From a virus, in IMG/VR virus record IMGVR_UViG_3300039456_000008, positions 1 through 37,915 of that record: 37,915 nucleotides of DNA. The stretch is one strand, 5' to 3'. The notes beneath the pieces are model-generated. The model was given only the letters and a program-made list of their open reading frames with translations, had not been told where the DNA came from and ran no database searches. A program made the position numbers and the translations under genes. Shown here one piece after another: positions 14,157-23,777 of this stretch (position 1 is the stretch's first letter; each line of letters begins with the position of its first letter).

Positions 14157-14723
14157 ATGGCTAAAACTACTCGTGGCCGTGGATCAAAAATAGAACAGCT
14201 CCCCGATGCTGTTAAATCGCTGTTAAACGCCATGCTGCGCGATCAGCAATACACGCAGCAAGACATCCTAGACGAAGTTAATACGCAGCTCGAAGCGATG
14301 GGTGCAGACGACGAAAAAATCAGCCGCAGCGGATTAAATCGCTACGCCACGCGCATGGCAGCGATTGGCAAAAAGATGCAAGAACGCCAAGCCGCTGCAA
14401 ACGCCCTGACATCAAAGCTGGGCGAAGTACCACAAGGTGATATAGGCAAACTGCTGATCAACATCACCCAATCACTCGCGTTTGACATTTTATCCGACGC
14501 AGCCGAAGGCGACGACCCCGCAAGCCTTGGCATGCTCAAAGATTTATCGCTACTGATCCGCCGCCTCGAAAGCGCCAACATGGACAGCCTCAAACGCGAA
14601 AAAGAAATTCGCAAAGCCTTTGCCGAAGAAGCAGCCAACGCCGCCGAAGAAATCGCCAAAGGTGCAGGCTTAAGCCGCGAAGCCATCCGCACCATCAAAA
14701 ACGAAATACTGGGGATCGCGTAA
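14157..14723 (+). CDS. DUF3486 protein, small terminase (Mu gp27)
   Basis: 188 residues of the DUF3486 family, helical throughout, with the family opening RGRGSKIEQLPDAVK and a long second half rich in Ala/Glu. It is treated as the small terminase subunit in Mu-like phages and would recognise the packaging site near the left end and load gp28. The order gp27-gp28-gp29 is kept, and its stop overlaps the terminase ATG (TAATG). Confidence 0.85.
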   Translation: MAKTTRGRGSKIEQLPDAVKSLLNAMLRDQQYTQQDILDEVNTQLEAMGADDEKISRSGLNRYATRMAAIGKKMQERQAAANALTSKLGEVPQGDIGKLLINITQSLAFDILSDAAEGDDPASLGMLKDLSLLIRRLESANMDSLKREKEIRKAFAEEAANAAEEIAKGAGLSREAIRTIKNEILGIA

Positions 14724-16255
14724 TGCAGCTGCCTGAGCTTATTCCCTACAACTCAAACGAGCTTTTACTCGGGTATCAAAAACGTTGGGTGGCCGATGAA
14801 TCGCCGTTAAAAATCGCAGAGAAATCACGCCGCACAGGTTTAACCTGGGCCGAAGCCGCCGATGCCACCTTAACCGCAAGCGCGGCTAAATCCGCAGGCG
14901 GTACCAACCATTTTTACGTTGGCTCAAACAAAGAAATGGCCCGCGAATTTATCGACGCCGTGGCCATGTGGGCAAAAGCATTCGACAAAGTCGCGACCGA
15001 AATCAGCGAAGAAGTCTTCACCGACGAAGACAAAGACATCCTCACCTTTGTCGTCTACTTCGACAGCGGCTACAAAGTGCAGGCGCTATCGTCCAACCCA
15101 TCCAACCTGCGTGGTATGCAAGGCAATGTCACCATCGACGAGGCCGCGTTCCATGAGCGCCTAGCCGAAGTATTAAAAGCCGCACTCGCACTCACCATGT
15201 GGGGCGCGAAAGTCCGTTTAATCAGCACGCACAACGGCGACGAAAGCATCTTTAACGAGCTAATAAACGACAGCCGCGCAGGCAAAAAACGCTACAGCGT
15301 GCATCGCATCACCTTAGACGATGCCTGCCGCGAAGGCTTATACCAGCGCATTTGCGAACGTACCGGCAAAACGTGGAGCATCGAAGCCGAAGAAGACTGG
15401 AAAGCGGGCCTACTTAAAGACACAGCAACAGAAGAAGACGCCCTAGAAGAATACTACTGCGTGCCCAAGTCCGGTGGCGGCGCGTACCTACCACGCATCC
15501 TAATCGAAGCGCGCATGCGCCCAGAATATACCGTCGTGCAATATCGTGGCACGACCGAGTTCAACCAATGGCCAGAGCACATCCGTGAAGCAGAAATGCG
15601 CGAATGGTGCGAGCAAAACCTACTGCCACTGTTAGTGGGCTTAGATCCAAAACTGCACCATTGTGTGGGCGAAGACTTTGGCCGCTCATCCGACATGACC
15701 GTCATGGCCCCCATGCAAGTTGGCTTAGACCTCATCCGGCGCGTGCCGTTTTTGTGCGAGCTGCACAACGTACCGTTTAAACAACAAGAGCAAGTCTTTA
15801 ACTACATCGCCGACCGGCTGCCACGTCTTTATGCCGGAGCCTTAGACGGTCGCGGTAACGGCCAATACATGGCCGAGCAAGCGGGCTACCGCTACGGCCA
15901 AGGCCGTATGGAATCCGTCATGCTCTCGCAGAGCTTTTATTTAGAGCACATGCCCAAGTTCAAAGCCGCGTTTGAAGACGACAAAATCCACATCCCACAG
16001 CATTCCGACACCCTGTCAGATCTGCGCGCCTTGCAAGTGATAAAGGGCATACCAAAACTGCCCGATACCAAAACCGACAGCAAAAAACAACGCCACGGCG
16101 ACTCAGCTATCGCGCTCTTTCTTGCTTACTACGCCTCACTAATGGAAGTCGAAGAGTTCGCCTACCACAGCGCCGCCAAACACCAGAACCGCAACAATGA
16201 CCACCATTACCGATCCATTCGCACAACAGGCGGCTTTCGTCGCGGCTGTTTGTAG
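14723..16255 (+). CDS. Large terminase subunit (Mu gp28)
   Basis: 510 residues. ATPase part: Walker A-like EKSRRTGLTW (33-42) and Walker B VTIDEAAF (136-143; Asp139, Glu140). Nuclease part of RNase H type: Asp318 in GEDFGRSSDMT, Asp375 in GALDGRGNG and Asp460 in HGDSAIA are the likely metal ligands. It cuts and translocates DNA by headful packaging from integrated phage copies. Full length for the family. The portal gene starts 9 bp downstream after a GGAG site. Confidence 0.95.
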   Translation: MQLPELIPYNSNELLLGYQKRWVADESPLKIAEKSRRTGLTWAEAADATLTASAAKSAGGTNHFYVGSNKEMAREFIDAVAMWAKAFDKVATEISEEVFTDEDKDILTFVVYFDSGYKVQALSSNPSNLRGMQGNVTIDEAAFHERLAEVLKAALALTMWGAKVRLISTHNGDESIFNELINDSRAGKKRYSVHRITLDDACREGLYQRICERTGKTWSIEAEEDWKAGLLKDTATEEDALEEYYCVPKSGGGAYLPRILIEARMRPEYTVVQYRGTTEFNQWPEHIREAEMREWCEQNLLPLLVGLDPKLHHCVGEDFGRSSDMTVMAPMQVGLDLIRRVPFLCELHNVPFKQQEQVFNYIADRLPRLYAGALDGRGNGQYMAEQAGYRYGQGRMESVMLSQSFYLEHMPKFKAAFEDDKIHIPQHSDTLSDLRALQVIKGIPKLPDTKTDSKKQRHGDSAIALFLAYYASLMEVEEFAYHSAAKHQNRNNDHHYRSIRTTGGFRRGCL

Positions 16256-16264
16256 GAGTAACAC

Positions 16265-17929
16265 ATGGCAGACAGCACAATACTAGATCACAACGGCCAG
16301 CCGTTTAAAAAATCCGATTTAAGCAAAGAAGTTGCCCACGCATCGCTTACCGGCGTGCGCAGCGTTTGGAACTGGGGCAGCGAGGCAGAATACATAACGC
16401 CCGAACGACTGGGCGCAATCCTGCGTGCCGCCAACGACGGCGACGCCACCGCCTATTTAACACTGGCTGAGGAAATGGAAGAGCGCGACCCGCACTACGG
16501 CTCGGTGCTCGGCACCCGCAAACGCGCCGTGTCTGGTTTGCCGGTTAGCGTAGAGTCCGCGACCGACGATGCCGCCGACGTAAAACTGGCCGACGCCGTG
16601 CGCGAACTGATACGCCGCCCAGAGTTTGGCGACATGCTCGACGACTGCCTAGACGCCCTAGGCAAAGCTTACTCAGTCATAGAAATGAACTGGGACACCA
16701 AACGCACCCCGTGGACACCGCGCGATCGCAACGAGCTAATCGACGGCGAATGGCACGAAGTCGAAGGCTACGCATGGCGCGATCCGCGCTTCTTTATGTA
16801 TGACCGTGTGCAAGGCCGTCAGCTGCGGTTAATAGATGAAGAAGACACCTACAACGGCAAACCACTGCCACCGCATCGTTTTATTATTCACCGCCCGCGC
16901 TTAAAGTCAGGGTTGCCGATCCGTGGTGGTCTAGCGCGTTTGGCTGCCGTTGCCTACATGTGCAAGGCCTACACCGTCACCGACTGGATGGCATTTGCCG
17001 AAGTTTTTGGCATGCCGCTGCGTGTCGGCAAGTACGGCACCGGCGCAACGCCAGATGACATCAACACACTCATCAACGCCGTGGCCAACATAGGCACCGA
17101 TGCCGCCGCCGTTATCCCCGAGTCCATGCGCATCGAATTTGAGGCCGCAGGCAACAGCACAGGCGGTGCCGATCTCTTTAAAAACTTGGCTGAGTATTTA
17201 GACAAACAAATCTCCAAAGCCATACTCGGCCAAACTGCATCAGCAGACGGCACGCCCGGCGCGTTAGGCAACTCGGATTCCCAGGATGAAGTTCGCCAGG
17301 ATATTTTAGAATCCGACGCCCGCCAACTCAGCAACACCATCAACAAATACCTGGTGCGCTCATTCATCGACCTCAACTTCGGCCCGCAAGAAAACTACCC
17401 ACGCGTAGTGATTGCGGCAGAAGATCAAGAAGACACCAGCGCACTGGTCGACAACGTCATGAAGTTGATCCCGTTCGGTTTAAAAGTCGAAGCATCCGTC
17501 ATGCGCGACAAACTCGGTTTGCCAGATCCTGAAGACGGTGCCGAAGTGTTAGCCGTTGCAGCTGCTCCAACGCCACCTACACCGTCAGAACAGCCGCAGC
17601 CAAACCAAACCGCACTCAATCAACAGCAGCCGTGTGGATGCCACGCCTGCACCCAAGCACTGCATACCGCACGCAATCGCGAGCAGTTCAACGCCAGCGA
17701 ACAAGCACTCGATGAACTCGAAGCCGCCAGCCTTAATCATTGGCAAGCCCAGATCGACCCAATCTTGCAACCCATCCGCGACTTACTGGATGCCGTAGAC
17801 ACCGCCGAAGAGTTCGCCGCAGGCCTGCAAGAACTGCTCGAAGACATGGACGACACCGAGCTAGTGCGCAACCTAGCAGCCGCTATGTTCCTGGCGAATG
17901 GAGTGGGCGACGGATCAGCAGATGCCTGA
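16265..17929 (+). CDS. Portal protein, DUF935 (Mu gp29)
   Basis: 554 residues, the usual length of DUF935 portals. The opening ILDHNGQPF, the WNWGSEAEYITPERLGAIL segment and MEERDPHYGSVLGTRKRAV are typical. It forms the dodecameric ring for DNA entry and neck attachment. The C-terminal part (about 430-554) is an extension with a Pro/Gln linker, a CGCHAC motif (457-462) and two A-x-N-type motifs (450-452; 469-473) that also recur in the protease/scaffold. The end overlaps the F-like gene. Confidence 0.95.
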   Translation: MADSTILDHNGQPFKKSDLSKEVAHASLTGVRSVWNWGSEAEYITPERLGAILRAANDGDATAYLTLAEEMEERDPHYGSVLGTRKRAVSGLPVSVESATDDAADVKLADAVRELIRRPEFGDMLDDCLDALGKAYSVIEMNWDTKRTPWTPRDRNELIDGEWHEVEGYAWRDPRFFMYDRVQGRQLRLIDEEDTYNGKPLPPHRFIIHRPRLKSGLPIRGGLARLAAVAYMCKAYTVTDWMAFAEVFGMPLRVGKYGTGATPDDINTLINAVANIGTDAAAVIPESMRIEFEAAGNSTGGADLFKNLAEYLDKQISKAILGQTASADGTPGALGNSDSQDEVRQDILESDARQLSNTINKYLVRSFIDLNFGPQENYPRVVIAAEDQEDTSALVDNVMKLIPFGLKVEASVMRDKLGLPDPEDGAEVLAVAAAPTPPTPSEQPQPNQTALNQQQPCGCHACTQALHTARNREQFNASEQALDELEAASLNHWQAQIDPILQPIRDLLDAVDTAEEFAAGLQELLEDMDDTELVRNLAAAMFLANGVGDGSADA

Positions 17930-19442
17930 ATACCGCTTTCCCTCGCAGCCGCCAAAAGACGCCCTAGAATGGTTTCGCGCCAAAGGCTTTAAACCCGCCT
18001 TTGATCATCGCGACGTATGGCGACAAGAGCACGCTCAAGCATTCACCGTCGCCAAAGCCATGCGCATGGACGTGCTCACCAGTATTCGTGAGTCACTAGA
18101 CCAAGCCCTAGCGGAAGGCAAAACCCTAGCGCAGTTTCGCCAAGAGCTAACCCCCACACTGCAAAAGCTGGGTTGGTGGGGCCGCTCTGACGAAGTGGAT
18201 CCGCTAACAGGTGAAGTGATCAATGCTCAACTGGGCAGCCCGCGACGTTTAAAAACCATTTACCGCACCAATATGCGCACCGCCCGAGCAGCTGGGCAAT
18301 GGCAGCGCATACAGCGACGCAGCAAAACGCACCCGTATTTAGTGTATGAGCTGGGGCCATCAGAACAACACCGCGTCCAGCATGTTAACTGGGCTGGCAT
18401 CATACTGCGTGCCGACGATCCGTTCTGGTCAACGCATTACCCACCCAACGGCTGGGGCTGCAAGTGTCGCGTGCGTCAGATCAACCAACGCGAACACGAC
18501 AAACTAATGAACTCAGGCGAGTTCACCGACAAAGCCCCACAGATCCGCAACCGTGAATACATCAACGACCGCACCGGCGAAACCCTACAAGTCCCCAACG
18601 GCATCGACCCCGGTTGGGACTACAACCCCGGCATGGCACGCGGCAAAGCTGCAAAGCAGCACGTCGCGCAAACAAAAAAAACAATGACCAAGGCACTGGC
18701 AAAGCCAGTACAGACGCAAGGCGTGCAAGTATTCCCGGCAGACCTAACCTTCAGCACCTGTAAAAACGTCACACAAGAAGGCGTGCAGCAGGTGCTCTCG
18801 CAGATCCCCGGCGCAGCGCCTCAAGTTGAAAAGCTCGCCCGATTTATGGAAGCCCATCCCACTAAAACCCTGTTTCTAAAACTGAGTGACCAAGGCAAAG
18901 GGAAAAAGGCATGGGAGCTAGAAAAGCCAATAGGCGAATTTTTAGGGCTTGAAGGGCGTGAGGCGCGGTCATCCTACTACTCACCTCGTGCCGGTCGGTC
19001 AAATGGCTGGACACGTTTAAATGCAGAATATGTAGTGGTAAAAGCCAAGGCGTCAGATAAGCTCACTAAGATAGACCCCGACCTCATGGCCGCCGCTGTC
19101 GATGCCGCTAGGCATGCCCAAGAGCTGGGCGACCGTAGCCGCTTTTGGTCGATGCGGGCAACCTATGACGCCCTCAACGGCGAAAGCCATCCGGGCCTAG
19201 TGAATACATGGATACATGAAGTCGGGCACCAAGTGCATGCCTGGGCAGGACTCCCCAGAGCGCCAATGCTCAAAAGCCTGACACTATACTCAGACACAAA
19301 TAGTCTCGAATGGCACGCAGAGCACTTCACAGCGTGGCTAATGAATCGCGCCAGCTTGGCCAAGTGGGATGAAAGCGTGGCAATATATTTTGACGAACTG
19401 ATAGAGGTTGCGATCCAATCCGATCGCAAGACAACACGATGA
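17922..19442 (+). CDS. F: MuF-type head protein fused to an HExxH metallopeptidase-like domain
   Basis: 506 residues from the ATG at 17922, which overlaps the portal stop; an ATG at 17898 is possible. Residues about 110-190 are the Mu F / SPP1 gp7 head-morphogenesis domain (LKTIYRTNMRTARAAGQ, YPPNGWGCKCR). After an Ala/Lys linker (about 240-265) comes an unrelated C-terminal region of about 240 residues with TWIHEVGHQVHAW, giving His432-Glu433 and His436, and a downstream Glu about 27 residues later in SLEWHAEHF, a gluzincin-like set. MuF proteins are packaged in small numbers with the genome, and MuF C-terminal toxin domains are known in other prophages. The domain may be injected and act in the new host, or process a virion protein. 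The domain call is by motif only. Confidence 0.85.
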   Translation: MPEYRFPSQPPKDALEWFRAKGFKPAFDHRDVWRQEHAQAFTVAKAMRMDVLTSIRESLDQALAEGKTLAQFRQELTPTLQKLGWWGRSDEVDPLTGEVINAQLGSPRRLKTIYRTNMRTARAAGQWQRIQRRSKTHPYLVYELGPSEQHRVQHVNWAGIILRADDPFWSTHYPPNGWGCKCRVRQINQREHDKLMNSGEFTDKAPQIRNREYINDRTGETLQVPNGIDPGWDYNPGMARGKAAKQHVAQTKKTMTKALAKPVQTQGVQVFPADLTFSTCKNVTQEGVQQVLSQIPGAAPQVEKLARFMEAHPTKTLFLKLSDQGKGKKAWELEKPIGEFLGLEGREARSSYYSPRAGRSNGWTRLNAEYVVVKAKASDKLTKIDPDLMAAAVDAARHAQELGDRSRFWSMRATYDALNGESHPGLVNTWIHEVGHQVHAWAGLPRAPMLKSLTLYSDTNSLEWHAEHFTAWLMNRASLAKWDESVAIYFDELIEVAIQSDRKTTR

Positions 19443-19657
19443 AACAACCGCCAATGAATAAAACCAGCGAAGCATTCAAACAAGCACAACAGCTGCTTAG
19501 CCTTGACCCCTTGCCAGATGATGCCGAACAGCGACTAGAAGCGTTAGAGATGCAAATACGCCCAGATGAAAGGGGTATGTTCGGAGACTTGTGGTCGGCG
19601 TTTGAATTAATTCAACCCGCTACCGAAGATTATCCTAATCCCACCAAGAGTGCGTAG
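19439..19657 (+). CDS. Small protein downstream of the MuF fusion, possible partner
   Basis: 72 residues, acidic, helical (KTSEAFKQAQQLLSLDPLP, DDAEQRLEALEMQIRPDE), no cysteine and no signal. The ATG overlaps the stop of the MuF-metallopeptidase gene (ATGA), so the two are made together. It has no counterpart in Mu. An inhibitor/immunity partner, or a chaperone for the C-terminal domain, is a reasonable guess from size and coupling, but no sequence evidence supports a family. A second in-frame ATG lies at 19454. Confidence 0.6.
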   Translation: MKQPPMNKTSEAFKQAQQLLSLDPLPDDAEQRLEALEMQIRPDERGMFGDLWSAFELIQPATEDYPNPTKSA

Positions 19658-20064
19658 CCATGACAAGCAAGCTCAGGTAGGCCTGTGTGGCTCTCTAGTA
19701 GTTAAAAAATAGAATGGTGCGGCATCGGTATGGGAAATGAGTAATAAGGCGAATACAGGAAGGTTTAAACAGGTTTTAAACGCTATTGGTGATCAATCAT
19801 CAGCATCATTGTCAGATCAATTATAGTTACACAGTAGTAGAAGATGAAAACACTAGGTATAAATAGTCTAGTGAGACCTTGGATGATGAGTGTTGATAGG
19901 CTCAAATCCATGTATTCCATTTTGTTATTGTACAAATGCTGATCATTCTATTAGAGTGGCCGCGTTTTTTACGCACACATATCTCAAACAACAAAACTAT
20001 ATTGTACAACTACATTTATCTAGCAATTAGTTATAACAATATCGCTTTATCATAAGGATTTGGA
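19658..20064. other. 407-bp AT-rich gap with paired TTGTACAA sites
   Basis: No gene-sized reading frame. The palindrome TTGTACAA occurs at 19928-19935 and 20002-20009, 74 bp apart, close to seven helical turns. The region separates the head operon from accessory block II and has a much lower GC content. It should hold the promoter of the 20065 gene; a TATAAC near 20032-20037 is a candidate -10 but no matching -35 was found. The paired palindromes may be operators. Confidence 0.45.
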
Positions 20065-20934
20065 ATGAGCGAAACGCATATTTTCCTGAAGTACGACGGC
20101 CACTCGGATGCACTAAAGAAACACAGAATTGAGGCCAAGCAGCTTGGAGAGACTCTAATAGAGTTAGCTGATCTCATTTATGATGCCAACACTACCTTGA
20201 ATGGTGTTGACTCCTTTGTGGATGTACAAGCCCAAGCTGGCTTTATTGAAGGATCCTTCGGGCTAGAGCTTATTATTGATCAAGGCTCCGTAGAAGGTGT
20301 GATTGAGGTCGCAAAGTATTTAGGTCTTGGAGTTACAGCCGTTGCTGGGAACTTACTATCTATCTTGAAGAATAAAGGCAGGAAAGAGCCTGACCTAAAT
20401 ACCGTTGTAATTGATGAGAGTAATGGTACTGCTACAATTATGCTTGATGACGAACAAGTCCCGACAACTCCAGAAGTTATCGAACTTCTAAAATCACGCA
20501 TAATTCGCAAAAGAGTTGCCAATATAGTTAACAAACCGCTTAAAGATCCAGGCATAGATATGTTTAAGGTTATGGACTCGGCGGATGATCAAAACGAAGT
20601 TATAAGCGTTGATAAGATTGCTAGCGAGATGTTCAAGGAACCTCCGCGAGTAAAATCCGAAACCGTAGAAGAGCTGGAGACAGTTGCTTCGATTGAGTTC
20701 CTAACATCCAATAAAGAAAGTGGTAGCTCAGGGTGGAGGATGCGGCACTTAGGTCAGGATGTGAGTGTGAAAGTTCAAGATGAGGTTTTTCTAAATGCTA
20801 TCAAGAAAGAAGATGAACCAAGCATATATGGCCTAAAATACAGGGTGGATTTGTTCTACAAAAAGACACAAAGCGCATCAGGCTCCCGCGATAACTACAT
20901 AATAACCAAAGTACGATCACGAGTTCGGGAATAA
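20065..20934 (+). CDS. Unknown 289-residue protein, accessory block II
   Basis: Soluble mixed alpha/beta protein. The start (THIFLKYDGHSDALKKHRIEAK and QLGETLIELADLIYDA) is followed by a beta-rich VDVQAQAGFIEGSFGLELIID, a short hydrophobic helix (about 88-105, LGLGVTAVAGNLLSIL), a long middle helical region and a C-terminal beta-rich part (about 215-285). I have an impression of a widespread unnamed prophage/host family with the same opening, but cannot name it. The ATG has AAGGA upstream. AT-rich with its own upstream gap, so it may be expressed in the lysogen. Possible anti-phage or conversion gene. Confidence 0.6.
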   Translation: MSETHIFLKYDGHSDALKKHRIEAKQLGETLIELADLIYDANTTLNGVDSFVDVQAQAGFIEGSFGLELIIDQGSVEGVIEVAKYLGLGVTAVAGNLLSILKNKGRKEPDLNTVVIDESNGTATIMLDDEQVPTTPEVIELLKSRIIRKRVANIVNKPLKDPGIDMFKVMDSADDQNEVISVDKIASEMFKEPPRVKSETVEELETVASIEFLTSNKESGSSGWRMRHLGQDVSVKVQDEVFLNAIKKEDEPSIYGLKYRVDLFYKKTQSASGSRDNYIITKVRSRVRE

Positions 20935-20954
20935 CAGTTTCGAGGTAGGTGAAA

Positions 20955-21161
20955 ATGAATTACTTACTAACTTTAATCGCCGTTTTCTGTGTCAGTTTTA
21001 TCCTGACAGAAATCTACTATCGTTTTAAACACAAAAAGATAGTAACAGTGAAGATTATTGATAAGGATGGATCTGAGCGATTTGTGCAAATAAAGCCAGG
21101 CAGAGATCCGGAAGTTGATGCTTTAATTGCAAGCATTAAGAAACAAAAAGGGAGTGCGTAG
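20955..21161 (+). CDS. Small membrane-anchored protein
   Basis: 68 residues from the ATG at 20955 (AGGT site upstream; a GTG at 20949 is an alternative). One N-terminal membrane segment (about 2-20), a basic patch (RFKHKK), then a short soluble domain with a beta-hairpin look (IVTVKIIDKDGSERFVQIKPG). Second gene of accessory block II, 20 bp after the first. Unknown function. Confidence 0.5.
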   Translation: MNYLLTLIAVFCVSFILTEIYYRFKHKKIVTVKIIDKDGSERFVQIKPGRDPEVDALIASIKKQKGSA

Positions 21162-21162
21162 A

Positions 21163-21528
21163 TTGGCTGAAACGCATTCTCCTTATAGTAAGCAAGTTAT
21201 TGCCGCAAAAGTCATAGCGCTACCATCCCTAATTGGCTTTGTAGAGCCTGTATTTCACTGTATAGGCTTGATGCCTGCCAGTGAATTTCACACCCCAGTG
21301 AAATTATTAGTGTCAGCCGTAATCGTCCTATCTGTAGAGTCATCGTCTATATGGTGCGTAAAAAAACTAAATCATAAAGAAATTGAGAGTAAAAAATTTA
21401 AAATTTCCCAACAAATATCTGAATTGGAAGGTTATCTGATTGAGGAACTAGATACTCCAACCATTAAGAATGTCGAGAAAGAAATAAGAAGATTAAAAAA
21501 AGAACTAACAAGTCTAATAGCTAAGTAG
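21163..21528 (+). CDS. Two-span membrane protein with a coiled-coil tail
   Basis: 121 residues using the TTG at 21163, which directly follows the previous stop and has GGGAG upstream; a TTG at 21127 would also be in frame. Two hydrophobic segments (about 16-36 and 45-65) are followed by a lysine/glutamate-rich coiled coil (about 70-120). The unusual start codon suggests coupling to the preceding gene. Unknown function; together with its neighbour it could form a membrane complex. Confidence 0.5.
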   Translation: MAETHSPYSKQVIAAKVIALPSLIGFVEPVFHCIGLMPASEFHTPVKLLVSAVIVLSVESSSIWCVKKLNHKEIESKKFKISQQISELEGYLIEELDTPTIKNVEKEIRRLKKELTSLIAK

Positions 21529-21583
21529 CAGTTCTTGGCAGTGGTATATAAATAGGTCACGTTTAAGACAGGAGTCACAACGC

Positions 21584-22081
21584 ATGAAAAACCAAGGATT
21601 CACTCTCGCACAATTCGCAGGCGCTATCCTGCTAACCATCACGGCATTACTCTTCTTCATCATGCCCGAACTCAAACAGCCCGACCCCGTAACACCGCCG
21701 GTCATTGCCAACGCACAAAATGAAGTTGAAGAAGCCACACTACTGAATGCAGCCGACACTCTGATGATGGAATGCCCCGATCTAGTTAAGTACGGTGTTG
21801 ATGTCAAAGAGATCCGAATGGAGTTAGGCGCAGCGTCACTAACGGCACAGCGTGAAAAGCAATGGCAAACGCAAGCCTCTGCAGAAGTCGTCATCGTTAC
21901 TGACGCTCAATATTTGCCGAAAGGTCAGCACTGCCATTATGGTTTGGGTGTATCGCCGATTGGCGAGTGGGGATTTTACGGCTCAAAAGAAGACTGTTTA
22001 AAGCTCTGTAACATGACAGAGAGCAGCGACTATGGCTATAAGGTCATCATGCACAGCCTTGCAAGCGAGGCAGCACAGTGA
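21584..22081 (+). CDS. Protein with a prepilin-like N-terminus
   Basis: 165 residues. The first residues MKNQGFTLAQ followed by a hydrophobic helix (about 9-28) resemble a type IV prepilin leader: a short basic leader, Gly5 before Phe6, then a membrane helix. The usual Glu at +5 of the mature protein is Gln here, so cleavage by a prepilin peptidase is uncertain, and a plain membrane anchor is the alternative. The soluble part has four cysteines (about 64, 112, 138, 142). The GTGA overlap with the next gene indicates coupling. Codon use and GC are closer to the phage core than the flanking accessory genes. Confidence 0.5.
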   Translation: MKNQGFTLAQFAGAILLTITALLFFIMPELKQPDPVTPPVIANAQNEVEEATLLNAADTLMMECPDLVKYGVDVKEIRMELGAASLTAQREKQWQTQASAEVVIVTDAQYLPKGQHCHYGLGVSPIGEWGFYGSKEDCLKLCNMTESSDYGYKVIMHSLASEAAQ

Positions 22082-22692
22082 CAGCAGAAGTGACTAAGCT
22101 GGCAAATGACATAGGTTTCAGTGACTGGCTTTCAGTCGTAGCCATCATTTTATCGTTTGCAACGTTTTATCTTACGCGTCGTAAAAAAGCGTCACTAACA
22201 ATAATTGCAGACGTAAATGAAAATTCTTTTAAATACTCGCCAATTCATACTCTGTATCGTGATGATGGGGTTGACCTTGCTAGGTATCATTTTAGTTTTG
22301 AATTGCTCTTATTAAACACCGGAAATGCCTCAGTATTTATTGAATCCGTTACTTTATTAGACCCCGGCACCAACAATGGTAAAATATCATCAATTAATTT
22401 TTATTCTAAGGAAAATAGGCTGTTAACCGGTGAACAAATTCTATCGATTCAGGTTAAAGACATGATGGGTTATGATCTGGATCTTCCGAAAGAAACAACT
22501 AATCATAAGTTAATATGCGATGTAAGAGTATTTACCCCCGATGGATTACCGACAATAGTATCGTTGCCATTAATTTTATTTTTGGATGAAAAACTTCACG
22601 TTAAAAAGGTTGAATCTGAAGCAAGAGAAATAAAATATCATTCTGTTAGTCATTGGGTTTCTAAATATTTTTTAAAATTTAAAAAGAAATAA
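22078..22692 (+). CDS. Membrane-anchored protein, accessory block II
   Basis: 204 residues from a GTG that overlaps the previous stop (GTGA). One membrane segment (about 15-33), a basic RRKK stop, then a soluble domain of about 170 residues with many beta strands (FSFELLLLNTGNASVFIESVT) and a lysine-rich end. The DNA is strongly AT-rich compared with the structural genes, indicating acquisition. Last gene before the second 24-bp element. Unknown function; with the preceding gene it may form a cell-envelope pair. Confidence 0.55.
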   Translation: MTAEVTKLANDIGFSDWLSVVAIILSFATFYLTRRKKASLTIIADVNENSFKYSPIHTLYRDDGVDLARYHFSFELLLLNTGNASVFIESVTLLDPGTNNGKISSINFYSKENRLLTGEQILSIQVKDMMGYDLDLPKETTNHKLICDVRVFTPDGLPTIVSLPLILFLDEKLHVKKVESEAREIKYHSVSHWVSKYFLKFKKK

Positions 22693-22693
22693 C

Positions 22694-22717
22694 CCACCGG
22701 AACACCCACCCCCGCCC
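22694..22717 (+). promoter_or_regulatory. Copy 2 of the 24-bp element before the protease/capsid operon
   Basis: Identical to 11946-11969. It lies 1 bp after the last accessory gene and 31 bp before the protease ATG, where Mu has PI. A CATACT (22737-22742) at the same distance as in copy 1 could be a -10, but it would give a leaderless or near-leaderless message, and no ribosome site is visible before that ATG. Promoter activation by Mor or a recombination junction are the two readings. Confidence 0.45.
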
Positions 22718-22748
22718 CTCCTAAACGTAGCCAGAACATACTGGCCAC

Positions 22749-23777
22749 ATGAAAACACCAAACGTCCTTTATATCGCGCTCAATACTGAACGGTCACTGC
22801 AACTAGAGACTGCGCTTTGCTTTGAGCTACCCGCAGACGGCACCATCCCAGAATGGGTGCCGCTTATCCCCGTGGGCGAAGTTATTGGCCGCGATGGCCG
22901 CAAATGGCAAAACAATGCCGAGCAAGTAATTGCACACACGGTTGCAATGAATCGCGATCAGCCGCTGGATTATGAACACAGCACCGAGCTAAAAGCCCCG
23001 ATGGGCGAAGAAGCGCCCGCCGCTGGTTGGTTCAAAGAATACCGCATCGCTAATGGCCACATTGAAGCCCGTTTAGAGTTAAACCCTCGTGGCCTAGCCT
23101 CAGTTCAAAACCGTGAATACCGCTATCTGTCACCAGTGTTTCAGTATGACGCCACCGGCAACATCTACGACATCCGCAGTGCTGGTCTAACCAACACGCC
23201 TAATTTGCTACTGCCAGCTCTAAACCGCGAACAAACCCCCGTTACTCAAAACAATCAGGAGACATCCACTATGGATCTCGCACAACTATTAGCCGCATTA
23301 GCGACCGCTCTAAACTCTGAAATCAGCACGCCAGAGCAAGCGCTGGCCGCTATTCAAAAGCAAAATACCGACCTGCAAACCGCTCGCAATGCTGAAGCCC
23401 AGCCCGACCTCACCAAGTTTGTGCCCGTAGAAACGCACGAAGTTGTATTGCAGCGCGCCATGAACGCCGAGCAAAAGCTAACCGACAACCTGCAAACCGC
23501 ACTGAATGCCGAGATCGATGCCGCCATCGACGACGCCGTCGCCCAGGGAAAAATCGCCCCAGCGAATAAAGATTTTTATCGCACCGCCTGCAACAGCGAA
23601 GGTGGGCTGGATAAATTCCGCGAGTTCGCCAAAGCCGCACCAGTCGTTGCAGCCCCGTCCGAACTGGATGGCAAAAAGCCCGGCGAACACAAAACGGCAC
23701 TAAACGCAGAAGAGCAAAAGATCGCTGATGCGTTTGGTAACACCGCAGAAGATTTAAAAACCTACGGCGCTGATTAA
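22749..23777 (+). CDS. I: Phage protease/scaffold (Mu I-like)
   Basis: 342 residues. The N-terminal 160 or so (WVPLIPVGEVIGRDGRKW, QPLDYEHSTELKAP, GWFKEYRIANGHIEARLELN, YRYLSPVFQYD) match the Mu I-like prohead protease, with His76 of YEHS a likely catalytic residue. The C-terminal half is helical scaffold. An internal start at 23271 would make the scaffold alone. A motif A-x-N-x-(E/D) recurs nine times across the protein (Asn at 12, 68, 159, 189, 214, 239, 253, 282, 319), possibly self-cleavage sites. No good ribosome site is seen before this ATG. Confidence 0.92.
   Translation: MKTPNVLYIALNTERSLQLETALCFELPADGTIPEWVPLIPVGEVIGRDGRKWQNNAEQVIAHTVAMNRDQPLDYEHSTELKAPMGEEAPAAGWFKEYRIANGHIEARLELNPRGLASVQNREYRYLSPVFQYDATGNIYDIRSAGLTNTPNLLLPALNREQTPVTQNNQETSTMDLAQLLAALATALNSEISTPEQALAAIQKQNTDLQTARNAEAQPDLTKFVPVETHEVVLQRAMNAEQKLTDNLQTALNAEIDAAIDDAVAQGKIAPANKDFYRTACNSEGGLDKFREFAKAAPVVAAPSELDGKKPGEHKTALNAEEQKIADAFGNTAEDLKTYGAD
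23271..23777 (+). CDS. Z: Nested in-frame scaffold protein (Mu Z-like)
   Basis: An ATG in frame with the protease gene, preceded by AGGAGA at 23257-23262 with ideal spacing, begins a 168-residue product (MDLAQLLAALATALNSE). In Mu the scaffold Z is made from an internal start in I in just this way. It should form the inner scaffold of the prohead and be removed by the protease. The product is acidic and helical and contains six of the A-x-N-x-E motifs. The strong internal site, against the poor one for the full-length gene, would give excess scaffold. Confidence 0.75.
   Translation: MDLAQLLAALATALNSEISTPEQALAAIQKQNTDLQTARNAEAQPDLTKFVPVETHEVVLQRAMNAEQKLTDNLQTALNAEIDAAIDDAVAQGKIAPANKDFYRTACNSEGGLDKFREFAKAAPVVAAPSELDGKKPGEHKTALNAEEQKIADAFGNTAEDLKTYGAD

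What the first reader, a model, noticed from the sequence alone, without database searches (positions are those of the whole stretch)
17922..19657. MuF head protein fused to an HExxH metallopeptidase-like domain, with a coupled small partner
Seen: the F-like domain ends near residue 240, then about 240 residues follow with HEVGH and a downstream Glu about 27 residues later, and a 72-residue gene overlaps the stop by ATGA. Known: some MuF proteins carry C-terminal toxin domains and MuF is packaged in the virion. Inferred: an injected zinc peptidase that acts on the new host, or a maturation protease, with the small protein as inhibitor or chaperone.
Basis: partly seen in the sequence, partly recalled or inferred. 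Interest (0 to 1): 0.85.

Follow-up and report, generated by a model that had tools for sequence, protein, structure and literature searches.

The report
Phage head protein carrying a protease
A minor structural protein of this Mu-like phage's head ends in a domain built like the zinc proteases anthrax lethal factor and PPEP, and a tiny neighbouring gene travels with that domain in very different phages, which suggests a protease injected into the next host and kept in check by its own partner protein.

Summary
The MuF (gpF) gene (window 17898 or 17922 to 19442) has a 250-residue C-terminal domain (CTD) with HEVGH and a Glu 27 residues later; a 72-aa gene (19439-19657) overlaps its stop by ATGA. 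The window's CTD matches no Pfam, NCBIfam or PHROG family. A 15-member profile hits lethal factor in the PDB (E 3e-5), and an AlphaFold2 model (pLDDT 88.7) aligns best to lethal factor (Z 11.4) and PPEP proteases (Z 9.6); HExxH, Tyr and Glu correspond.

The CTD is a swappable module: most MuF relatives drawn by the MuF domain have nothing, or other domains, there. A homologue of the small gene follows the CTD in 58 of 61 non-redundant loci (45 of 48 outside the profile's own rows) and 0 of 64 MuF genes without it. It tracks the CTD, not MuF (partial r 0.66 against 0.01). The same CTD plus a remote homologue of the partner sits on a different MuF in Prochlorococcus-type phages (61 of 61 complete loci).

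Best explanation: a head-packaged peptidase effector, injected with the DNA, with a dedicated inhibitor/chaperone. Packaging, injection, activity, target and inhibition are inferred. MuF toxins with metallopeptidases and small downstream ORFs are published; this lethal-factor-like pair was not found in my searches.

The parts
17922..19442 (+). MuF (gpF, minor head protein) with C-terminal peptidase-like domain; 506 aa from ATG 17922, 514 aa from ATG 17898
18081..18473 (+). Phage_Mu_F domain (residues 62-192 of 514)
   Evidence: Pfam PF04233, E 4.6e-19
18690..19439 (+). C-terminal domain (residues 265-514): lethal-factor/PPEP-like zinc peptidase fold
   Evidence: profile hit to PDB lethal factor E 3.2e-5; AF2 pLDDT 88.7, pTM 0.89; Z 11.4 to lethal factor, 9.6 to PPEP-3
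19215..19229 (+). HEVGH (residues 440-444), predicted zinc ligands and general base
   Evidence: HExxH in 17 of 17 genome loci found by profile
19287..19289 (+). Tyr 464, aligned with the Tyr of the lethal-factor active site
   Evidence: replaced in L190
19308..19310 (+). Glu 471, predicted third zinc ligand, 27 residues after the second His
19439..19657 (+). 72-aa acidic helical partner gene, ATGA overlap with the MuF stop
14723..16255 (+). terminase large subunit (context)
   Evidence: Pfam Terminase_6N E 3e-8
16265..17929 (+). Mu-type portal protein, upstream of and overlapping MuF (context)
   Evidence: Pfam Portal_Mu E 5e-103
22749..23777 (+). separate Mu-like head maturation protease gpI (context)
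   Evidence: Pfam Mu-like_Pro E 3e-56

Best explanation
The MuF domain carries a C-terminal zinc peptidase of the lethal-factor/PPEP fold into the phage head as a few copies bound near the portal; it enters the next host with the DNA and cuts one or more host proteins at the start of infection. The small acidic helical protein, made from the overlapping next gene, binds the peptidase domain in the producing cell and keeps it folded but inactive until it is sealed in the capsid. Shown here: the fold match, the kept catalytic residues, the exchangeability of the domain, and the exclusive association and co-variation of the partner with the domain. Inferred: packaging and injection (from what is published for MuF), activity, the target, and the partner's inhibitor or chaperone role.
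For: Fold. Kept active site. Purifying selection on the domain as strong as on the MuF part (dN/dS 0.10 and 0.15 in the domain, 0.15 and 0.18 in the MuF part, against L001 and L002). The domain is one of several at an exchangeable site. Partner in 58 of 61 domain-bearing and 0 of 64 domain-less non-redundant loci (Fisher p 2e-32); leaving out the loci from which the partner profile was built, 45 of 48. Partner distance follows the domain and not MuF-N: partial r 0.66 against 0.01, 53 loci. Opposite net charge: domain median +5.5 (range -7 to +11), partner median -8 (range -15 to -1), 56 loci. The same pair sits on a different MuF in cyanophage-type phages. The phage has its own head protease. 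Published parallel: MuF toxins Bxa and Apk2 with adjacent inhibitory immunity proteins (PMC11699363, passages; PMC12226406, abstract and outline).
Against: No direct evidence of packaging, injection or activity. In L190 the Tyr is replaced. Plain Foldseek against the PDB gives no match at E 0.001 or better (best 0.012). Single members also touch other zincin families, the best of all being Peptidase_M90 in one member (E 4e-4). One clade of 51 on the MuF tree is all domain-bearing, though its members were fetched by the domain. In cyanophage-type phages every locus fetched has the domain, but the search was made with the domain, so a structural role there is not excluded. A partner conserved for so long is less polymorphic than I would expect of an immunity protein.
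Confidence: 0.55

Rival explanations
1. A head-assembly protease: the domain processes MuF itself or other head proteins during maturation, and the small protein delays it or is its assembly cofactor.
For: Iyer 2017 proposes self-processing for metallopeptidase domains of virion-borne polyvalent proteins (PMC5512222 section 8). In cyanophage MED4-184 no separate head protease is annotated, and the five products after the partner that I scanned gave a scaffold, a major head protein and three of unknown or unrelated function. The cyanophage MuF also matches a PHROG called head maturation protease over its MuF part (phrog_595, residues 59-405), so MuF-protease fusions are known to that library.
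Against: This phage has a Mu-type head protease. Of MuF relatives drawn by the MuF domain and complete at the 3' end, 74 of 76 lack the domain in one draw and 31 of 42 in the other. The site also takes unrelated domains.
Confidence: 0.18
2. A weapon between bacteria: the lysogen releases particles that deliver the peptidase into competitors, and the small protein is an immunity protein protecting kin lysogens (polymorphic toxin-immunity pair in the strict sense).
For: Jamet 2017 proposes this for strongly toxic MuF proteins (PMC5576092 sections 8 and 13); Bxa and Apk2 are toxic to E. coli or other bacteria when expressed and have immunity proteins.
Against: The partner lies in the late head operon, so expression in a quiet lysogen is doubtful (inference). 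The pair also occurs in cyanophage isolates on Prochlorococcus; an annotated excisionase there hints at, but does not show, a temperate life. In two genome draws every full-length match was on MuF (17 of 17), not in other toxin classes, though the profile was built from MuF fusions only.
Confidence: 0.17
3. A structural or inactive remnant: the fold is kept for head architecture, and the small protein is a minor head component.
For: Lethal-factor-fold domains without activity exist (the edema factor N-terminal region appears at Z 7.3; that it is non-catalytic is recalled). One member lacks the Tyr (L190).
Against: HExxH in 17 of 17 genome loci found by profile; Tyr in 57 of 58 and Glu in 58 of 58 rows that have a residue there (4 of 62 rows are gapped, which I put down to C-termini cut short in my script; many rows were fetched with motif patterns). 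Most MuF relatives do without the domain.
Confidence: 0.08

Closest known systems
MuF polymorphic toxins of temperate phages (Jamet 2017, PMC5576092; Bxa, PMC11699363; Apk2, PMC12226406)
   Same: MuF N-terminus, exchangeable enzymatic C-terminus, small gene directly downstream. [quoted passage not shown]
   Different: The window's domain matches no Pfam, NCBIfam or PHROG family, is lethal-factor-like, lies in Mu-like phages of Gammaproteobacteria and in cyanophage-type phages while Jamet's toxins were mostly in Firmicutes, and has one partner lineage shared by both. Whether it equals some of Jamet's unspecified metallopeptidases or Ct_MAD could not be checked (supplements closed).
Peptidase family M34 fold: anthrax lethal factor C-terminal domain and PPEP-1/2/3
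   Same: Best fold and profile matches; HExxH, Tyr and Glu in the same order. That both belong to family M34 is recalled.
   Different: 16-19% identity to lethal factor over about 160-170 residues; the window domain itself gets no ATLF match in Pfam; delivered on a phage head protein.
Tox-ALFMetallopeptidase of polymorphic toxin systems (Zhang 2012, PMC3482391)
   Same: Lethal-factor-like metallopeptidase used as a C-terminal effector.
   Different: Zhang lists it for PVC and T2SS systems with a SuFu immunity protein, not for MuF (passages); the partner here is a small helical protein, 52-100 aa in the 58 loci counted.
MPTase domains of polyvalent proteins (Iyer 2017, PMC5512222)
   Same: Zincin-like domain in proteins carried by virions; remote similarity to lethal factor reported (passage).
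   Different: Those are multi-domain proteins forming 12 clades said not to be specifically related to other defined clades (section 8); here the lethal-factor/PPEP fold stands out and a partner gene is fixed.
PBECR / MuF-C domain of phage Mu gpF
   Same: Occupies the same C-terminal site of MuF.
   Different: Nuclease-like fold per Iyer 2017 (passages); the extensions here that I take for it are about 104-189 aa, and no homologue of this partner follows any of them.

Membership tests
MuF minor head proteins (Pfam PF04233) | Match above the gathering score | tested here: met
   69.7 bits against 29.6
MuF polymorphic toxins | C-terminal domain exchanged among MuF proteins | tested here: met
   domain on a different MuF class in cyanophage-type phages
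MuF polymorphic toxins | Small ORF directly downstream, tied to the C-terminal domain | tested here: met
   58 of 61 against 0 of 64, 45 of 48 outside the profile's own rows; partial correlation
MuF polymorphic toxins | C-terminal domain is toxic and neutralised by the small protein | not testable with these tools
   needs expression assays
MuF polymorphic toxins | Carried by a temperate phage | tested here: met
   Mu transposase, GemA and Mu-type tail genes in the window, taken as temperate by kinship; for the cyanophage isolates not shown
M34 / anthrax-lethal-factor-like peptidases (Pfam ATLF PF07737) | Match above the Pfam gathering score | tested here: not met
   window domain: no ATLF match up to E 5; 3 of 15 relatives match, best E 0.0024 (cut-off not printed there)
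M34 / anthrax-lethal-factor-like peptidases (Pfam ATLF PF07737) | Fold of the peptidase domain | tested here: met
   Z 11.4, rmsd 3.2, 158 residues to 4pkw; Z 9.6, rmsd 3.3, 160 residues to PPEP-3 9g5j. Plain Foldseek was weak: best E 0.012
M34 / anthrax-lethal-factor-like peptidases (Pfam ATLF PF07737) | HExxH, catalytic Tyr, Glu ligand in order | tested here: met
   PPEP titles name Glu and Tyr mutants of the enzyme
M34 / anthrax-lethal-factor-like peptidases (Pfam ATLF PF07737) | Zinc-dependent peptidase activity | not testable with these tools
   needs purified protein
Mu-type head maturation protease | Match to Mu-like_Pro | tested here: not met
   MuF protein has no such match up to E 1; the separate gene 22749-23777 does

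The most novel reading that the evidence does not exclude
An old two-gene effector module, a lethal-factor-like peptidase plus a dedicated small helical inhibitor that also serves to load it, was passed as a unit between different MuF head proteins of Mu-like myophages and Prochlorococcus-type phages; it is injected with the genome and cuts a conserved host protein (defence or regulation) in the first minutes of infection. It would be, as far as I know, the first lethal-factor-type protease shown to work inside bacteria as a phage infection factor.
Probability: 0.35. Interest if true: 0.78.

Novelty: new member of a known kind. Interest (0 to 1): 0.52.

Why it matters
It turns an unnamed C-terminus in marine phages into a testable protease with a testable inhibitor, and gives a handle on what phages inject besides DNA. 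The same pair on two different head-protein backbones says the function is useful across very different hosts. Isolates with the pair exist in named phages (Pseudoalteromonas phage HS6, cyanophage MED4-184), so the experiment can be done.

Tried and rejected
Considered and rejected: a chance HExxH (rejected by fold, and kept residues); the whole C-terminus as a constant part of gpF (rejected; in 'phages' 316 records hold a MuF match at E 1e-3 and only 3 cover 80% of the protein); the small gene as a normal neck gene of all such phages (rejected). Searches without result: window 13000-37915 against 'phages' by megablast; the window's domain alone against NCBIfam and PHROGs (two relatives' domains do hit phrog_241); partners against Pfam, only weak scattered hits; a DNA scan from the partner alignment, which had no stretch conserved enough. 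Fold look-up of the partner model (pLDDT 78.6) gave nothing above Z 6.3, which says little for a small helical protein. PADLOC was not searched. Paper searches; 'lethal factor' with 'MuF' and 'bacteriophage' gave only Zhang 2012 and Iyer 2017, so 'not found in print' rests on these searches of an open-access library only. Rows left out before counts: one search dropped MuF ORFs running off the contig (192 left) and near-copies at 95% identity (126 left), and one domain-bearing locus with too little DNA downstream (62 to 61); one search used 56, then 53, of these; L186 and L187 (weak, non-MuF zincins) and L020 were left out. In one search I used 106 domain-less loci for a Fisher test; the recount is 105, and repeats it.
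Full report
What is there. The window is a Mu-like transposable phage: Mu transposase, GemA, terminase, Mu portal, MuF, Mu-type protease, gpT head protein, sheath and Mu baseplate genes. MuF spans 17898/17922-19442; L003 and L005 start where ATG 17922 lies. Pfam sees only the MuF domain, residues 62-192, above its cut-off. PHROG 220 (minor head protein and DNA pilot) aligns over residues 15-489 of the full protein, but the window's C-terminal 250 residues alone match no NCBIfam or PHROG family and only two sub-threshold Pfam entries of no sense here (BRK, Rpn9_C). The 72-aa gene at 19439-19657 overlaps the MuF stop by ATGA.

The C-terminal domain. Fifteen relatives align with invariant H176 E177 H180, T198, Y200, E207, E211 (domain numbering). 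A profile of them finds lethal factor in the PDB (seven distinct sequences, E 3.2e-5 to 0.19; the next, unrelated, at 0.36), over the HExxH helix and the Glu helix; Y200 and E207 align with a Tyr and a Glu of lethal factor (that these are its catalytic Tyr and third zinc ligand is recalled). Scanned one by one against Pfam, 3 of 15 touch ATLF (best E 0.0024), 2 DUF2268, 1 Peptidase_M90 (E 4e-4), others less. The AlphaFold2 model from 13 sequences has pLDDT 88.7 and pTM 0.89. Plain Foldseek against the PDB is weak (best E 0.012, PPEP-3, then lethal factor); in the viral library three unnamed proteins match at E 4e-4 or better. VIA-align puts lethal factor (Z 11.4, rmsd 3.2, 158 residues) and PPEP-1/2/3 (Z up to 9.6) in the first 44 of 50 rows shown, then edema factor, Certhrax and others at Z 7.3 or less. 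I call the domain lethal-factor/PPEP-like, not a member of Pfam ATLF, because the window protein gets no ATLF match.

It is a module. In a draw by the MuF domain alone 2 of 80 IMG/VR loci have the domain; the other 78 (4 of them run off the contig) have short tails or other extensions. The extensions cluster mainly into groups of 16 (two of them named phages) and 9 that I take for PBECR-type domains (by resemblance; no call names them), plus pairs and singletons. In a second draw, from a different MuF clade, 12 of 44 have the domain (one of the 12 and one of the 32 others run off the contig); others carry a second kind of zincin, a possible kinase-like domain (by eye; no Pfam match), a weak phosphoribosyltransferase match, PBECR-like tails or nothing. 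On a quick MuF tree of 126 proteins the domain needs 5 changes of state, 2 of them forced by starred branches; one clade of 51 is all domain-bearing, but its members were fetched by the domain, and the second draw shows domain-less MuF near that clade (L275-L277, 53-54% identical to L012).

The partner belongs to the domain. Profile A2 of 14 small proteins hits the downstream gene in 58 of 61 non-redundant domain-bearing loci and in 0 of 64 domain-less ones at E 0.01 (56 of 61 at 1e-5; Fisher p 2e-32). Thirteen of the 61 gave rows to A2; outside them it is 45 of 48. In the two draws made by MuF alone: 12 of 13 complete domain-bearing loci against 0 of 105 complete domain-less ones, not thinned for near-copies (Fisher p 2e-15). 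The three misses (L027, L080, L192) have small ORFs at the same place; the cyanophage partner profile hits L192 at E 0.0012 and L080 at 0.1, L027 not at all. In whole genomes, draws of 390 and 394 gave 17 full-length matches, all on MuF, all with a partner hit, the weakest L192 at E 0.04; two further weak matches (L186, L187) are non-MuF zincins without it. Across 53 loci partner distance correlates with the domain (r 0.75; given MuF-N 0.66) and not with MuF-N once the domain is accounted for (0.01); 0 of 500 permutations reach the observed r. The partner is helical in the model (pLDDT 78.6, pTM 0.61) and acidic, the domain mostly basic.

A second backbone. tblastn found the catalytic part in cyanophages MED4-184, MED4-117 and P-HS2, on a MuF of PHROG 241 (L020), again with an ATGA-coupled gene of 63 aa. 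Of 65 such loci 4 run off the contig inside MuF; all 61 complete ones have the small gene (58, one of them cut by the contig end; 3 more by direct translation). Domain profiles match at probability 99.2%, E 1.7e-19, 144 columns, and the cyanophage domain profile also finds lethal factor (E 4.6e-4). Partner profiles match only at probability 39.9% (E 3e-4); that score, 23.8, beats 300 of 300 column shuffles (best 16.2) and 300 of 300 within-segment rotations (best 22.2). The cyanophage partner profile, run over 13,668 ORFs of the Mu-like loci, has its 24 best ORFs (28 rows, E 2e-4 to 0.84; 4 of the 24 are second copies of the same contigs) next to the domain; only L090/L270, L192 and L092 are below E 0.01, and the first hit elsewhere is at E 1.1 (for four copies the place follows). 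I take the pair as homologous and moved together.

Selection. Window against L001 and L002: dN/dS in the domain 0.10 and 0.15, in the MuF part 0.15 and 0.18; in the partner, L001 only, 0.28 on 13 changes (ratios).

Mechanism. [quoted passage not shown] Bxa and Apk2 show that adjacent small proteins can block MuF toxins. With an intact active site, a separate head protease, exchange against other domains, and a locked-in partner, an injected peptidase held off by the partner fits best (0.55). Assembly protease, inter-bacterial toxin and structural remnant remain (0.18, 0.17, 0.08).

Known or new. Known: MuF toxins, 20% with metallopeptidases, small ORFs downstream; lethal-factor-like toxin domains in PVC and T2SS toxins; zincins in virion-borne proteins. 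Not found in my searches: this family, its partner lineage, or its presence on cyanophage-type MuF. Jamet's tables could not be opened, so overlap with Ct_MAD or the unspecified metallopeptidases is open.

Noticed in passing
L279, L280, L289 (MuF C-terminus and next gene): A second MuF zincin (AHEIGHFIDH) that the domain profile does not hit, with its own ATGA-coupled 54-aa gene that the partner profile does not hit: a parallel pair.
   Followed up: partly
L172:4144-6036: MuF with a 387-residue C-terminus containing HEYGH; no Pfam match besides MuF.
   Followed up: partly
L281 and L307: MuF C-termini that look kinase-like (L281, by eye, no Pfam match in the 260 residues scanned) and phosphoribosyltransferase-like (L307, Pfam E 9e-4, below cut-off).
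   Followed up: partly
window 19658-22748: Insert between the partner and the head protease with a 289-aa gene (PHROG 3243, unknown function) and small genes; in named relatives such as L015-L019 the protease follows much sooner.
   Followed up: no
L291-L295, L299-L301: ORFs of 740-748 aa in which the MuF profile match ends near residue 690, so MuF seems fused behind another protein, perhaps the portal.
   Followed up: no
L186:1435-1815 and L187 (reverse strand): Zincins in bacterial genomes, not on MuF, with weak similarity to the domain, possible cellular relatives.
   Followed up: partly
Aeromonas plasmids (hits H69-H76): Eight plasmid records carry a match to this domain (36-40% identity), annotated as phage minor head protein, so Mu-like prophages with it seem to sit on plasmids.
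   Followed up: no
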